Source of the DNA: a virus
DNA: 27,602 bases
Direction: 5' to 3' (one strand)
IMG/VR virus record: IMGVR_UViG_3300009034_000180
Span: 1 to 27,602 of that record
Shown: positions 2,819 through 21,419 of the stretch, one piece after another
How the letters are laid out: each line of letters starts with the position of its first letter
Position numbering within the stretch: the first letter of the stretch is position 1
Notes under the pieces: model-generated
Told to the model about the DNA's origin: nothing
The model's input: the letters and a program-made list of their open reading frames with translations, nothing else
Database searches by the model: none
Program-made: the position numbers and the translations under genes

Positions 2819-3000
2819 CCATTATCTTCTTAACAGACGACCAAGCTGAAAAGCTTGAAATACCCGCACCCTCTATGAAGGTCAAACGATATAGTCTCAG
2901 TCCGGGCAGCGTTGTTTTAGACAATGAGATCTGCACTGAGAGGGAGTTTATTAAACGGCTCGGCAAGACAGCCCTAACCCAACTGGAGGAGGAGGGATGA
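2815..3000 (+). CDS. Small hypothetical protein
   Basis: A 61-aa protein whose ATG overlaps the stop of the nuclease gene (ATGA-type), while its own TGA overlaps the start of the next gene. It is therefore embedded in a tightly coupled operon. It has a short beta-rich start (MTIIFLTDDQAEKLEIP) and an acidic helical end. I see no recognisable motif. Its position between the nuclease and the CxxxCxxC protein suggests an accessory role in the same module, but nothing in the sequence shows it. Confidence 0.7.
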   Translation: MTIIFLTDDQAEKLEIPAPSMKVKRYSLSPGSVVLDNEICTEREFIKRLGKTALTQLEEEG

Positions 3001-3650
3001 ATAAAACTAAAATTGAATGGACTGATTTTACTTGGAAAATCATCACCGGTTGTAAGCATGGCTGTCCTTATTGCTATGTCAAACGGTTCACTAAGGACAT
3101 GACTCCGCAATTTCACCCGGATCGCTTAGAACAACCCTTAAAATTAAAAAAGCCCTCCATGATATTCGTTGCTAATACTGGAGATATGTGGGGAAGCTGG
3201 GTTTCGCAGTGGCAGATTGAAGAAGTTCTGTCAATAATCAAACGATGTCCTCAGCACATATTTCAGTTCCTAACTAAAAATCCGAAGCGATATTTGAGAT
3301 ATGATTGGAGTGATCTGCCGAACGCTTGGCTTGGTGCTACTGTTGAAAGTCAGCATCATATTCACCGAATGTGGGAGATTTTAGTAACCAAAGGTGCTCA
3401 TGTCAAATTTGTATCCTTTGAACCTCTTCACGGATTTATTGACTCTTCTATTGACGATCTTGACTGGGTAATCATTGGTGCCGAGAGCATAGGCCGAGCC
3501 AGCAACCCAAAGGATGTTATCAGTACCCAGAGATGGGCAAAGCCACTTATTGAAAGCGTAAGAAAAGCTAACATTCCCTTATTCCTAAAACCTAACTTGC
3601 AATGGCCAGAAAAAATAAAGGAATTTCCGAAAATTAAGGAGCCACAATGA
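2997..3650 (+). CDS. Phage Gp37/Gp68-family (DUF5131-like) iron-sulfur protein
   Basis: This 217-aa protein starts with IEWTDFTWKIITGCKHGCPYCYVKR, split here as IEWTDFTW followed by the motif C19-x3-C23-x2-C26. That is the radical-SAM-like cluster signature typical of the phage Gp37/Gp68 (DUF5131) family. The family is distantly related to spore photoproduct lyase. The downstream pattern also fits: NTGDMWG, QFLTKNPKR, WLGATVES, VSFEPL and WVIIGAES occur in the expected order. The biochemical role of the family is not established, though DNA repair or nucleic-acid modification has been suggested. The protein is shorter than many members. A GGAGGAGG ribosome site lies just ahead of the ATG, which overlaps the preceding stop. 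Confidence 0.85.
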   Translation: MNKTKIEWTDFTWKIITGCKHGCPYCYVKRFTKDMTPQFHPDRLEQPLKLKKPSMIFVANTGDMWGSWVSQWQIEEVLSIIKRCPQHIFQFLTKNPKRYLRYDWSDLPNAWLGATVESQHHIHRMWEILVTKGAHVKFVSFEPLHGFIDSSIDDLDWVIIGAESIGRASNPKDVISTQRWAKPLIESVRKANIPLFLKPNLQWPEKIKEFPKIKEPQ

Positions 3651-8225: not shown

Positions 8226-8409
8226 AAAAACCAATGGCTGGAGAAAGGTGGTCATCTTTTTGGTTTCCGAAGTGACGGTGCTTCTAATGACGCTGTTTGG
8301 AGGATTATCAGCAGAGACGGCGGCTGATGTAATCAAATACATCGCTTTAGGCTTCTTCGCTGGTAACGGGATTGAACACTTGGGGAAGCTGATTAATATC
8401 GTCAAGTAG
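8218..8409 (+). CDS. Small membrane protein, holin-like
   Basis: A 63-aa protein with a strong AAAGGAGG site. It has two hydrophobic segments, VVIFLVSEVTVLLMTLFGG and VIKYIALGFFAGNGI, separated by a short turn with acidic residues, and a charged N-terminus. This topology fits a class II holin, but small accessory membrane proteins can look the same. The recognisable lysin is on the opposite strand at 11764-12183 beside another holin-like gene, so this one may have a different timing or role. Confidence 0.55.
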   Translation: MPEKTNGWRKVVIFLVSEVTVLLMTLFGGLSAETAADVIKYIALGFFAGNGIEHLGKLINIVK

Positions 8410-8410
8410 G

Positions 8411-8590
8411 CTTTCCATCCTCACCCAGGGATGGAACCTCCCGAAAATGAGTAAACGCTTGGATACCAAGAAGGTTGCTTATTTCCTCCTGGCCCGGTGG
8501 GATAGGGAGTGTATAGCTGAGGGGTAGCCGGGCCAACTGAATTACTCAGGGCTGGTTGTAGGGGACTTGTCTCCGCCAGCCCTGGGGGAT
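8411..8590 (+). ncRNA. Candidate structured RNA with nested GC-rich stems
   Basis: This stretch has no credible gene but holds a dense set of long perfect stems. They are 8413-8420/8429-8436 (TTCCATCC, 8 bp), an enclosing stem 8448-8454/8542-8548 (TGAGTAA, 7 bp), inner hairpins 8458-8462/8466-8470 and 8490-8497/8528-8535 (TGGCCCGG, 8 bp), and 8549-8555/8576-8582 (GGGCTGG, extendable to 9 bp). The last is capped by 8561-8565/8570-8574 with a CTTG tetraloop. CTCC at 8486-8489 could pair with GGAG at 8506-8509 inside a loop as a pseudoknot. The stems are far more GC-rich than their surroundings. The class is not recognised. Confidence 0.6.
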
Positions 8591-8608
8591 TGAATTTGTA
8601 ATTACTAT

Positions 8609-8659
8609 AAAAGCACAGGGAGTTCCTATTAATATTGCATATATCTACTCCCCGCTTTT
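8609..8659 (+). repeat. Covarying hairpin repeat R1
   Basis: Outer stem AAAGC (8610-8614) pairs with GCTTT (8654-8658). An internal loop has ACA on the 5' side and a single C (8653) on the 3' side. Inner stem GGGAG (8618-8622) pairs with CTCCC (8648-8652). The terminal loop starts TTCCTATTAAT and ends CTA, with a small AT mini-stem inside. Confidence 0.75.
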
Positions 8660-8667
8660 TAAAATTC

Positions 8668-8722
8668 GAGGCATAAGAAGTTCCTATTAATTTGACTTGA
8701 AATCAAAATTACTTCTCGCCTC
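8668..8722 (+). repeat. Covarying hairpin repeat R2
   Basis: Outer stem GAGGC (8668-8672) pairs with GCCTC (8718-8722). The internal loop is ATA opposite C8717. Inner stem AGAAG (8676-8680) pairs with CTTCT (8712-8716). The loop starts TTCCTATTAAT, contains a mini-stem TTTGA/TCAAA, and ends TTA. Compared with R1 and R3, both strands of the stems change together. Confidence 0.75.
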
Positions 8723-8750
8723 ATTTATTTAGAAAGTTATAAAGGTTTAA

Positions 8751-8799
8751 TAAGGCAAAGGAAGTTCCTATAAAAATTTGCCAATTACTTCCCGCCTTA
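8751..8799 (+). repeat. Covarying hairpin repeat R3
   Basis: Outer stem TAAGGC (8751-8756) pairs with GCCTTA (8794-8799). The internal loop is AAA opposite C8793. Inner stem GGAAG (8760-8764) pairs with CTTCC (8788-8792). The loop starts TTCCTATAAAAA and ends TTA. It lies seven bases ahead of the AAAGGAGG site of the 659-aa gene. Confidence 0.75.
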
Positions 8800-8819: not shown

Positions 8820-10799
8820 ATGAAATCGATGGTAAGGTTGTTCAAAGCGGTTGAGATAAAATCAAAGAAAAAAAAGAATCCGAGTAAGGAGCTGATGAAG
8901 GAAACTATAAAAAGAGGATTCATCTTTTCTTCGGAAGTAGCTTATAATTATACAGAGCAGGAACTAAGAAAATTAATTAAAATCATAGAAGAAGAGGTCG
9001 GCCTAACTGCCGAGAAAATGAATCAGTCTTTTCATAAGTCTTGGCAGAAAATTAAGGAGGCGGATTTAGAACAGTTGGTAGTTGAACAAATAGCACATTA
9101 TTTAACTACTTATGGGAAAGAACAGCCTAAAGAATATCTAATAGAAAAAGAGGAGCAATGGGGAGTAGATAATCTGGCAGAGAAAATAATCGAATTGCCT
9201 GACTTTGAATCGAATAAAATCCAAAATGAAAACTATATCTATATCCCAAAGGAGGCATTGAATATACCGGATATTGAGATAGATAGGATTCAGCTTACAG
9301 TCATCAAGGGTTATACGAAAAAAGAATTAAAAGAAAAGTTGCTATCATTGCTTCAATCAGGGATAGCCCTCGGAGAAGAGACTATAAATGATGTTGTTGA
9401 TATTGCCACTCATGTTGGGATAGACGAAGAAGATATAGATAATATAAAAAATAAAGAGGTAAAGATAGCTCTTTACGATTACCTAAAACTGTTCCCGGAA
9501 AACCCCATCGAGTTTTTAAGATATGTTATTTATAAATGCACAGGCAAAACACTTCTAATCAAAGATAAGGCTACTATAGAGGGAATCAAGGAGCCTGAAG
9601 GTTCAAGTGTTCTTCCTTTGTTTAAGAAATATAAAAAGAAGCACGGATTGGAAAACTTAGCTCAGATATTTTTAAGGTTCAAGCCTCTTTTCCTTGCCTT
9701 CAAAGCCGATAGAACAATGAGTCCTACCATAAATAAAATAAGGAGGTTTGCTAAAACACATCATAAGCCAATGGGAGAGGATTATCTTAATGAGGTTACT
9801 GCTAAGATTAAGAAAGGGGAAAGGATAGAAAAGAATAAACTGGAGGAAGAGTTAAGCAGAGTAAATACATTTAGAAAAATAAGATTGGCTTATGCTTTGA
9901 AATTTAGAACGAAAGATGTTGATTCAATCCTTTATAGGATAAGGAACGGAAAGGGATATGCAACGGATTTTAGTTTTGAGAAAAAAGCTATGGCGAAAAA
10001 GATATTGGATGTTGTTATGGATTCGATAGTTGAGGATATGAAAGCGAATATCAAGGGCAAGAAAATCTATATCCCTGAGTATATAACTTACACGCTACCC
10101 GCAACAGAGAAGCAGTTTACTGGTGATTTTCCTTCCGGGAGTTATGTCTCAATACCGAAGGATATGATTGTTGGTATTCATTGGGAAAATGTAGATGGAA
10201 ATATGATCGACCTGGATTTGTCTATGGTAAATGATGAAATGAAAATCGGATGGGATTCTGTATATAGAACAGAAGATAGAAATATTTTATTTTCCGGGGA
10301 CATAACAAACGCCCCAAAGCCGAAAGGAGCAACCGAGTTATTCTATATCAGAAAGCAGATTATGAGCTCATATATCCTTTTTGTGAATTATTATAATTAT
10401 GACGATGATGTGGAAGTTCCCTTCAAGATAATTGTAGCAAAAGAGCAAGCAAGGAATTTTAAAGAGAATTATATGGTTAACCCAAACAATGTGATGTCTA
10501 TTGCTAAAACAAAGATTGACCAAAAGCAAAAACTGTTAGGGCTATTGGTAACGACAACTAATGAATGTAGGTTTTATTTTGCGGAAACTTATCTTGGCAG
10601 GTCAATAACTTCTTCAAATTCAGTATTTGTTAAGAATAGCCTTGAATATCTTTTTGGTTTTTATAGGAATACTATTGATTTGAATAGTCTGTTAATAAAA
10701 GCGGGAGGTAATTTAGTAGCAAATAAGGATAAGTGTAATATAGATTTATCCCCTGAAAGTCTGGAAAAGGATAAGATTATAAATCTAATAAAACCATGA
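8820..10799 (+). CDS. Large protein of unknown family with C-terminal TerD-like domain
   Basis: This 659-aa protein has a strong AAAGGAGG site. The N-terminus is basic (KSKKKKNPSKE, residues 14-24), and residues 25-415 are mostly helical, with conserved-looking stretches such as NTFRKIRLAYALKFRTKDVD (349-368) and a helix-rich solenoid appearance. Residues about 430-545 are beta-rich and match the TerD pattern by eye: DLDLSM (464-469), FSGDIT (491-496) and YILFVNYYNYDDD (518-530), resembling the DLDAS, TGDN and strand motifs of TerD calcium-binding domains. A further 110 residues follow. No signal peptide or membrane span is visible. It sits directly behind three structured repeats, and its stop overlaps the winged-helix gene by four bases. 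RNA binding to those repeats is an inference. Stress or defence roles known for TerD systems are another possibility. Confidence 0.7.
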   Translation: MKSMVRLFKAVEIKSKKKKNPSKELMKETIKRGFIFSSEVAYNYTEQELRKLIKIIEEEVGLTAEKMNQSFHKSWQKIKEADLEQLVVEQIAHYLTTYGKEQPKEYLIEKEEQWGVDNLAEKIIELPDFESNKIQNENYIYIPKEALNIPDIEIDRIQLTVIKGYTKKELKEKLLSLLQSGIALGEETINDVVDIATHVGIDEEDIDNIKNKEVKIALYDYLKLFPENPIEFLRYVIYKCTGKTLLIKDKATIEGIKEPEGSSVLPLFKKYKKKHGLENLAQIFLRFKPLFLAFKADRTMSPTINKIRRFAKTHHKPMGEDYLNEVTAKIKKGERIEKNKLEEELSRVNTFRKIRLAYALKFRTKDVDSILYRIRNGKGYATDFSFEKKAMAKKILDVVMDSIVEDMKANIKGKKIYIPEYITYTLPATEKQFTGDFPSGSYVSIPKDMIVGIHWENVDGNMIDLDLSMVNDEMKIGWDSVYRTEDRNILFSGDITNAPKPKGATELFYIRKQIMSSYILFVNYYNYDDDVEVPFKIIVAKEQARNFKENYMVNPNNVMSIAKTKIDQKQKLLGLLVTTTNECRFYFAETYLGRSITSSNSVFVKNSLEYLFGFYRNTIDLNSLLIKAGGNLVANKDKCNIDLSPESLEKDKIINLIKP

Positions 10800-20132: not shown

Positions 20133-20692
20133 TATTTAATCGCCTCTTTTACGAATCCATCAGCTACTTGTATTGACATCATCAAGGCTAAATTCTTTGA
20201 GGGCAACATCGGCCTTTTTACTAATCCAGGATGGGTAACACCTCTTGAAAATATTGCCTTCCCCTTTTCTCCTTTACTGCCTGCACCTTTTGCAAGATGA
20301 GATCTCTCGGCAGGATTTACACCAAATAAAAGAACTTTCTTTTTTACAGGAACTATCTGATAACCTTTAGTGCCGAACTCATGGTATTTAGCAATCTCTA
20401 ACGGCGATCCTATCTTTACACTTCGCCCCCCTACTTGATAAGCATAGCTTTGTTTTAGTTTCCCGGTATCCTGTAATATCTTAGATGACTTTTTCCGCCT
20501 CGCTTGAATGGTTAGCTTACTAAGCTCCTTCCATTTATTTTCTTTACCCTCGGCCTTGAAATTATCATCAACGAATTTTAATATCTTAATTCCAATTCTT
20601 TTATAAAGCACCTTATGATTAGATACCTTTTTCTGTATCTGCCGGAAGCTCCTTGCTAATTCGTCTGTGCCTTTAACATCAATATCAAGCAT
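20132..20692 (-). CDS. Phage virion morphogenesis protein (Mu gpG / HK97 gp10-like)
   Basis: A basic protein of about 186 aa. Features seen are LARSFRQIQKKV, KWKELSKLTIQARRKK, an ILQDTGKLKQSYAYQVGGRS core, and AKYHEFGTKG. The DTG-x-L-x2-S and Y-H-x-(F/G)-G motifs are hallmarks of the virion morphogenesis/tail-completion family. It helps join head and tail. I start it at the ATG at 20692, which overlaps the radical SAM stop after GGGGTGG. A start at 20707 is possible and would add five residues. Confidence 0.85.
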   Translation of the reverse strand: MLDIDVKGTDELARSFRQIQKKVSNHKVLYKRIGIKILKFVDDNFKAEGKENKWKELSKLTIQARRKKSSKILQDTGKLKQSYAYQVGGRSVKIGSPLEIAKYHEFGTKGYQIVPVKKKVLLFGVNPAERSHLAKGAGSKGEKGKAIFSRGVTHPGLVKRPMLPSKNLALMMSIQVADGFVKEAIK

Positions 20693-21419
20693 GAACCACC
20701 CCGACATTAGGCATAATTATCTTATTCTCTTGCATCCTCTCAGGTATAATATGATGACAGGTTGCACATAATTTAAAAGGCTTCAATCTCATTTTAAACA
20801 TATCTTGATATACATTGCCTACTATCCCATAACCGAAGGCATCAAGGCAACAGGTTGTTATATCACCATTAGACATAATCATCACCTCACCCCGGCCAAG
20901 CCAGGGGCAGTTCATTTCATAATCTACATTATCAGTCCAGTTTATTTGCCCCGCCCAATTATTAGGATAAACGGCATAATCAATATTCCAATTAAACTTG
21001 ATATGTGCCTTTCTGAATATTTTTACTGTCTTTGCTGTTGACTTAGCATCATGTGCAGTAATATCAATACTTGTTATCCCCGCATCTCTACAAGCTATTG
21101 CCAAGTCCTCAGTCATCAATTTTCCATTAGTGTTAAAATGCAAGATACCCGGATTCGGGAATACTTCACGAGCCATTCTTATCATCCGGGGTAAGGCCGG
21201 ATTCATAGTAGGCTCACCAATGCCAAATAAATTCAACTGCTCTAACTGAGTTCCCTGTTCAACCAACTTATCCAACCAATACAAAGTCCTTTCATATATA
21301 TCCAATGTCATCAAACCAACATCCCTGTAATTGCCTTGAACCTGATTAGGGCAATAAGGACACTTGTTATTACACAAGCTGGATAGTTCTATGTTGGTAA
21401 TAGAGGTTATTGGTTGCAT
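20685..21419 (-). CDS. Radical SAM enzyme with SPASM-like C-terminus
   Basis: This 244-aa protein has the radical SAM signature C16-x3-C20-x2-C23 (CNNKCPYC), followed by GIGEPTMNP (a GxGEP-like strand 2 motif), FNTNGKLM and IDITAHD. Its C-terminal part has further cysteines, CPWLGRG, ITTCCLDAFG and LCATCHH, as in SPASM/twitch domains that bind a second iron-sulfur cluster and usually modify peptides. It sits between connector genes in the virion operon, directly after a small Cys-containing protein. A peptide substrate, possibly that small protein or a virion protein, is an inference. Confidence 0.85.
   Translation of the reverse strand: MQPITSITNIELSSLCNNKCPYCPNQVQGNYRDVGLMTLDIYERTLYWLDKLVEQGTQLEQLNLFGIGEPTMNPALPRMIRMAREVFPNPGILHFNTNGKLMTEDLAIACRDAGITSIDITAHDAKSTAKTVKIFRKAHIKFNWNIDYAVYPNNWAGQINWTDNVDYEMNCPWLGRGEVMIMSNGDITTCCLDAFGYGIVGNVYQDMFKMRLKPFKLCATCHHIIPERMQENKIIMPNVGVVHA

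What the first reader, a model, noticed from the sequence alone, without database searches (positions are those of the whole stretch)
8609..8799. Three tandem hairpins with compensatory base changes
Three copies share one architecture: 5-bp outer stem, 3x1 internal loop (ANA opposite a single C), 5-bp inner stem, and a loop starting TTCCTAT(T/A)AA and ending (T/C)TA. Outer stems are AAAGC/GCTTT, GAGGC/GCCTC and AAGGC/GCCTT. Inner stems are GGGAG/CTCCC, AGAAG/CTTCT and GGAAG/CTTCC. Four base-pair columns change on both strands together, while the internal loop and loop start stay fixed. That is selection for structure, most likely in RNA. The fixed asymmetric loop with a lone C looks like a protein recognition site. 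I do not know a described RNA class with this form.
Basis: seen in the sequence. Interest (0 to 1): 0.85.

Follow-up and report, generated by a model that had tools for sequence, protein, structure and literature searches.

The report
Phage hairpin RNAs displaying tRNA pieces
The three hairpins belong to a widespread, previously uncatalogued family of small phage RNAs that sit beside one uncharacterised Ro60-like/TerD protein and hold out pieces of tRNA in their loops, so they look like a phage counterpart of Ro–Y RNA particles that may manipulate or decoy host factors acting on tRNA.

Summary
A covariance model finds exactly three copies in the window (56-65 bits). Tandem copies lie beside homologues of the adjacent 659-aa ORF in at least 71 of 84 non-redundant loci, on the gene's strand. 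Searching with the RNA's 5' arm alone gave ten new contigs: the six with a confirmed hairpin encode the protein, the other four have neither. Pairing and covariation are strong even when pairing is not used for selection. Some copies lie 10-150 kb from the gene, so this is not only a 5'UTR switch. No Rfam, Pfam, PHROG or NCBIfam family covers RNA or protein.

The variable loop is the surprise. Many short loops are tRNA anticodon-arm mimics; window copy 2 is Ser(UGA)-like. Six long loops in four genomes are complete circularly permuted tRNAs opened at the anticodon loop, the topology of bacterial Y RNA (YrlA); Rfam's YrlA model matches five of them (E 2e-7 to 2e-5, below its cut-off).

The protein is predicted confidently (pLDDT 92): helical N-domain plus TerD-fold C-domain, with a weak whole-chain match to Ro60. 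Best reading: a phage Ro/Y-like RNP displaying tRNA parts. Binding is inferred; the purpose (decoy or tether) is open.

The parts
8610..8658 (+). Hairpin copy 1: outer stem 8610-8614/8654-8658, ACA 8615-8617 opposite C8653, inner stem 8618-8622/8648-8652, loop 8623-8647 (UUCCUAUUAA...UCUA)
   Evidence: CM 55.8 bits, E 2e-15; z -3.2
8668..8722 (+). Hairpin copy 2: outer GAGGC/GCCTC, ATA x C, inner AGAAG/CTTCT; loop holds UUUGA-CUUGAAA-UCAAA, a tRNA-Ser(UGA)-like anticodon arm
   Evidence: 64.6 bits, E 2.9e-18; shares ACTTGAAATC with tRNA-Ser(tga) anticodon arms; z -3.9
8752..8798 (+). Hairpin copy 3: outer AAGGC/GCCTT, AAA x C, inner GGAAG/CTTCC; loop contains UUGCCAA, which resembles a Gly(GCC) anticodon loop (by eye only)
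   Evidence: 59 bits, E 1.8e-16; z -3.9
8820..10799 (+). Partner gene, 659 aa: predicted helical N-domain (about 1-430) and TerD-fold C-domain (about 435-605); inferred RNA-binding partner. Starts 21 nt after hairpin 3
   Evidence: pLDDT 91.8; TerD Z 11.5; Ro60 Z 5.5 whole chain

Best explanation
The hairpins are small non-coding RNAs that form a ribonucleoprotein with the 659-aa protein encoded next to them. The constant part (two-part stem of 5 and 5-6 bp, ANA x C internal loop, UUCCU at the loop start and UA at its end) is the protein-binding handle. The variable loop is a display module that presents pieces of tRNA: anticodon arms, T-arm/acceptor minihelices, or a whole tRNA body permuted so that the handle replaces the anticodon loop. 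This works like Ro60-Y RNA (handle bound by a HEAT-type ring, tRNA-mimic module free to engage other factors). The most likely use is to engage host proteins that bind or cut tRNA, as decoys or tethers, during infection. Shown here: the RNA family, covariation, linkage to the protein, tRNA content of a subset of loops, predicted TerD fold. Inferred: binding, transcription, and what the displayed tRNA parts recruit or titrate.
For: RNA structure. Family and linkage: hairpins in 71 of 84 loci within 1.5 kb, 155 upstream and 14 downstream, further loci by CM, in phage-like contigs of bacterial assemblies; reciprocal test 6/6 versus 0/4 (120, 123, 124). Copies remote from the gene, so trans-acting: Phass-1 about 10 kb, G013, G015 and G016 about 38-155 kb. 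tRNA content: rotated loops called tRNA by ARAGORN for 6 loops in 4 genomes, 0 for shuffles and 0 unrotated; Rfam YrlA model matches L089 (two), L068, L017 and L002 loops at E 2e-7 to 2e-5, three of them over 1-114/114, while a run of seven ordinary tRNAs reaches only 18.6 bits, E 0.64; 7-nt-loop hairpins enriched with T33 61% vs 30% and C32 37% vs 15%; 10-mers shared with tRNA anticodon arms in 18 loops vs 4.6 shuffled, 2 reverse-complement. L033 2160-2275 is a normal-order tRNA with the handle inserted in the anticodon loop. Setting: homologues sit in tRNA arrays in many phages. Protein: AF2 pLDDT 91.8; TerD Z 11.5, Ro60 9nf8 Z 5.5 over 283 residues, 27-658 vs 5-526. YrlA is a circularly permuted tRNA mimic (PMC11472068) whose basal stem binds Rsr (PMC8394870).
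Against: No direct evidence of transcription or binding. Ro60 similarity is weak: Foldseek finds nothing below E 0.001, Z 5.5 is in the range of common arrangements, the N-domain alone does not reproduce it well, and TROVE profiles show no sequence similarity. YrlA scores are about half its gathering cut-off. Many short loops show no recognisable tRNA element; window copies 1 and 3 are only suggestive. The closest copy ends a median 26 nt before the start codon, which also fits cis regulation.
Confidence: 0.7

Rival explanations
1. Anti-defence decoy (a sharper version of the best explanation): the displayed anticodon arms and tRNA bodies are baits that soak up or mislead host tRNA-targeting nucleases activated on infection, complementing the phage tRNA arrays found beside many copies.
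For: Loops mimic the parts that anticodon nucleases recognise; several anticodons are represented; neighbours are tRNA arrays; phage tRNAs are known or proposed to counter tRNA-cleaving defences (PMC10264068, PMC11555353).
Against: Permuted-tRNA members lack an anticodon loop altogether, so they would not bait anticodon nucleases; no functional data; no defence genes identified next to the array; many phages with the system have no tRNAs in the flanks held.
Confidence: 0.35
2. Cis-regulatory 5' UTR element: the protein (or a ribosomal/host protein) binds the hairpins in its own leader to autoregulate translation or mRNA stability.
For: Most copies lie directly upstream; the closest one ends a median 26 nt before the start codon; same strand as the gene.
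Against: Copies also lie downstream of the gene and 10-150 kb away; up to seven copies with different loops; loops carry tRNA bodies, which autoregulation does not need; the outer stem ends at 5-6 bp as for a discrete RNA.
Confidence: 0.15
3. tRNA maturation element: the hairpin is a processing or ligation signal that circularises or splices permuted tRNAs, the protein being a phage tRNA-processing factor.
For: Permuted tRNAs joined at the anticodon loop resemble permuted tRNA genes known elsewhere; L033 has a tRNA interrupted at the anticodon loop (114).
Against: Most loops (125 of 175 are 20-39 nt) hold no tRNA body to mature; the anticodon stem of L068 copy 5808 looks decayed; no nuclease or ligase domain recognised in the protein.
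Confidence: 0.07
4. DNA-level repeat (recombination site, origin or protein-binding DNA element) rather than RNA.
For: Tandem copies in intergenic DNA.
Against: Strict one-strand orientation, G-U pairs tolerated, asymmetric internal loop fixed, tRNA modules in sense orientation only.
Confidence: 0.03

Closest known systems
YrlA / bacterial Y RNA (Rfam RF02553)
   Same: Closed basal stem made by the 5' and 3' ends; long-loop members enclose a circularly permuted tRNA-like module; encoded next to their presumed partner protein
   Different: Score about half the gathering cut-off; window copies do not match; most members have 20-40 nt loops with anticodon arms or no tRNA part; occur in tandem arrays of up to seven
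Ro60 / Rsr (TROVE, PF05731)
   Same: Similar overall plan, helical N-domain then C-terminal domain; weak whole-chain structural match (9nf8 Z 5.5, 283 residues); linked to Y-like RNAs
   Different: No TROVE sequence signal; C-terminal domain has a TerD fold instead of vWA
TerD domain proteins (3ibz, 2kxt)
   Same: C-terminal residues 435-605 fold as TerD (Z about 10-11.5), with a DLDLS...SGD...E motif that recalls the Ca-binding region (motif assignment by eye and general knowledge)
   Different: Fused to a large helical domain; no Pfam TerD hit; linked to RNA rather than to ter operons
Phage tRNA arrays countering tRNA-targeting defence (PMC10264068, PMC11555353)
   Same: Found in the same genomic places; share tRNA parts
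   Different: These RNAs are unlikely to serve in translation: they are anticodon arms alone or tRNA bodies without an anticodon loop

Membership tests
Y RNA / YrlA (RF02553) | Score at or above the Rfam gathering threshold (69 bits) | tested here: not met
   Best 39.2 bits; window copies give no YrlA match
Y RNA / YrlA (RF02553) | Circularly permuted tRNA-like module closed by a basal stem | tested here: met
   Met for 6 long-loop copies in 4 genomes, not for the window copies
Y RNA / YrlA (RF02553) | Basal stem bound by Ro60/Rsr | not testable with these tools
   Binding needs an experiment; only gene linkage is shown
Ro60 / TROVE (PF05731) | TROVE domain detectable by sequence | tested here: not met
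   No Pfam hit in 65 homologues; profile-profile probability 0.3-0.4%
Ro60 / TROVE (PF05731) | HEAT-repeat ring fold | tested here: inconclusive
   Ro60 Z 5.5 over 283 residues, rmsd 5.2; Foldseek none; N-domain alone Z 4.7 over 75 residues
Ro60 / TROVE (PF05731) | C-terminal von Willebrand A domain | tested here: not met
   C-terminal domain matches TerD with Z 10-11.5 instead
TerD | TerD beta-sandwich fold | tested here: met
   3ibz Z 11.5, rmsd 2.9 over 143 residues, on a predicted model; sequence models do not detect it
tRNA / permuted tRNA gene | Recognisable tRNA in native gene order | tested here: not met
   No unrotated loop is called tRNA; L033 2160-2275 is a separate special case
Any Rfam 15 family (window copies) | Match at gathering score | tested here: not met

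The most novel reading that the evidence does not exclude
A previously unrecognised class of phage RNP in which one Ro60-like/TerD protein carries a library of handle-tagged tRNA fragments and permuted tRNAs as decoys or baits against host tRNA-directed defences, evolved independently of, or as a distant branch of, Ro-Y RNPs.
Probability: 0.35. Interest if true: 0.93.

Novelty: new variant of a known kind. Interest (0 to 1): 0.85.

Why it matters
It gives a widespread hypothetical phage protein an RNA partner and a testable role, shows that phages from cyanophages to gut phages carry arrays of tRNA-part mimics, and offers a natural experiment on what Ro-Y-like particles are for, a question long open. 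If the decoy reading is right it is a new counter-defence strategy beside phage tRNA arrays.

Tried and rejected
Pfam, PHROGs and NCBIfam on the partner and on 65 homologues: nothing convincing; the weak NCBIfam hit to the MXAN_6230/SCO0854 family covers only the TerD part. PDB sequence searches: nothing. Single-protein scan of viral contigs found no relatives; the four-sequence profile found 102, of which 80 were kept. Plasmids: none. Conserved neighbours: none beyond scattered endonuclease-like, methylase-like and slipin-like genes in 5-7 loci (names by eye). Campylobacter phage CP21 weak RNA hit rejected: it lies inside a structural-region gene. Loop complementarity to tRNA (guide RNA idea) rejected: matches to anticodon arms are in sense orientation, reverse complement at or below shuffle level. 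The first scan required pairing, so covariation was re-measured without that requirement; alignment A4 (51) was chosen partly on pairing, so its 94% is inflated. The six Rfam matches to the window array up to E 10 are chance. An Rfam Plastid-ycf2 match is antisense to ordinary tRNAs and irrelevant.

Full report
OBSERVATION. The three hairpins exist exactly as described and each folds better than every shuffle. A covariance model built from 65 related copies finds these three and nothing else in the window.

FAMILY. The hairpins end 21 nt before a 659-aa ORF (8820-10799) without any recognised domain. tblastn in named phages finds homologues in Synechococcus phages S-CRM01 and S-CBWM1 and gut phage Phass-1 at 26-31% identity; all sit among or near tRNA or tmRNA genes and all carry the same hairpin nearby. 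A profile scan of IMG/VR gave 80 loci. A scan anchored on UUCCU, ANA and the 3' UAC....C, without requiring the variable pairs to pair, finds 163 copies on the gene strand and 5 on the other; pairing of 84-91% exceeds every shuffle. On alignment A4, 218 cells show changes on both sides against 66 in shuffles, and sliding the partner by one to three bases drops pairing from 94% to 37-54% (A4 was partly chosen on pairing). Strict hairpins lie within 1.5 kb of the gene in 71 of 84 non-redundant loci, 155 upstream and 14 downstream; the CM adds further loci. Eight contigs in bacterial assemblies carry the protein, and six of these carry hairpins.

RECIPROCAL TEST. The 5' arm alone as a DNA pattern gave ten contigs not yet held. 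The CM confirms hairpins in six; those six, and only those, encode the protein.

TRANS, NOT ONLY CIS. In Phass-1, G013, G015 and G016 CM hits lie about 10 to 155 kb from the protein gene. So the RNAs can be independent genes.

LOOPS. The loop is constant only at UUCCU and at its final UA (the scan itself required TTCC and a final A). Short loops: hairpins with 7-nt loops are enriched (z about 4), with T at position 33 in 61% against 30% in shuffles and C at 32 in 37% against 15%, the signature of anticodon arms. Eighteen loops share a 10-mer with anticodon arms of tRNAs in the same set of loci, against 4.6 in shuffles and 2 for the reverse complement; these include Lys(UUU), Ser(UGA), Asn(GUU), Pro(UGG) and Tyr(GUA). 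Window copy 2 is one (UUUGA-CUUGAAA-UCAAA). Long loops: six in four genomes become ARAGORN tRNAs when the halves are swapped and a generic anticodon loop is inserted, never when shuffled or unrotated. They are whole tRNA bodies, closed at the acceptor stem and opened at the anticodon loop, where the hairpin handle takes over. Rfam's YrlA model is the best match for five of these loops: L089 39.2 and 33.4 bits, L017 39.0, L002 35.9, L068 33.1, three of them over the full model, while a run of seven ordinary tRNAs gives only 18.6 bits. All are below the gathering score of 69. In L033 the same composite occurs opened elsewhere: a normal-order tRNA whose anticodon loop is replaced by the handle.

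PROTEIN. AlphaFold2 with 64 sequences gives pLDDT 91.8. Residues 435-605 have the TerD fold (Z up to 11.5). The only match spanning nearly the whole chain is Ro60 (9nf8, Z 5.5, 283 residues, rmsd 5.2, 27-658 against 5-526; 9nep Z 4.7). That Z alone is weak: Foldseek finds nothing significant, the N-domain alone gives Ro60 only Z 4.7 over 75 residues, and TROVE profiles do not align. Its weight comes from agreement with the independent RNA evidence, since YrlA is a circularly permuted tRNA mimic (PMC11472068) whose basal stem binds Rsr and whose tRNA-like domain binds PNPase (PMC8394870).

MECHANISM. Shown: an RNA family under structural selection, tied to one protein family, whose loops often carry tRNA parts. 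Inferred: the protein binds the handle (about 0.8); the RNP displays tRNA parts to other factors (about 0.7); these serve as decoys for host tRNA-directed enzymes (about 0.35) or as tethers or gates as in Ro-Y-PNPase (about 0.3). Permuted bodies without an anticodon loop argue against anticodon nucleases as the only target.

COMPARISON AND NOVELTY. It works like a Ro-Y RNP, but fails the sequence tests for both Ro60 and YrlA and has TerD in place of vWA, so I do not file it as a member. A jumbo-phage survey notes genuine TROVE proteins in a few phages (PMC7824862); this is a different family. Literature searches found no description of these RNAs, within the open-access papers held; a description in a subscription journal or preprint cannot be excluded.

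Noticed in passing
L100 (Lactobacillus phage LpeD, MF787246) minus strand 4400-4220: The distant homologue LpeD_166 (746 aa) has two tandem two-part hairpins directly upstream with a different shared loop start (UACUUCUA), suggesting that RNA and protein diverge together.
   Followed up: partly
L033 2160-2275: A normal-order tRNA with encoded CCA whose anticodon loop is replaced by the hairpin handle in permuted order.
   Followed up: partly
L036 6807-7730 and L070 7014-7659: The partner gene is split by insertions that encode homing-endonuclease-like proteins (by eye), probably introns or similar elements.
   Followed up: no
window 8405-8600: The intergenic stretch before the array is G+C-rich and folds into four stable hairpins (-79 kcal/mol, z -2.4); no Rfam or phage match. 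It may be a further structured RNA.
   Followed up: partly
L004 5500-5970: In gut phage Phass-1 a run of about six such hairpins lies immediately before a phage tmRNA gene.
   Followed up: partly
L051 222 and L002 2250-2320: Other loop types: D-arm plus Pro(UGG)-like anticodon arm, and a T-arm/acceptor minihelix.
   Followed up: no
window 2997-3650 and 20685-21419: Two radical-SAM type genes (DUF5131 and radical SAM/SPASM) in a small phage contig.
   Followed up: no
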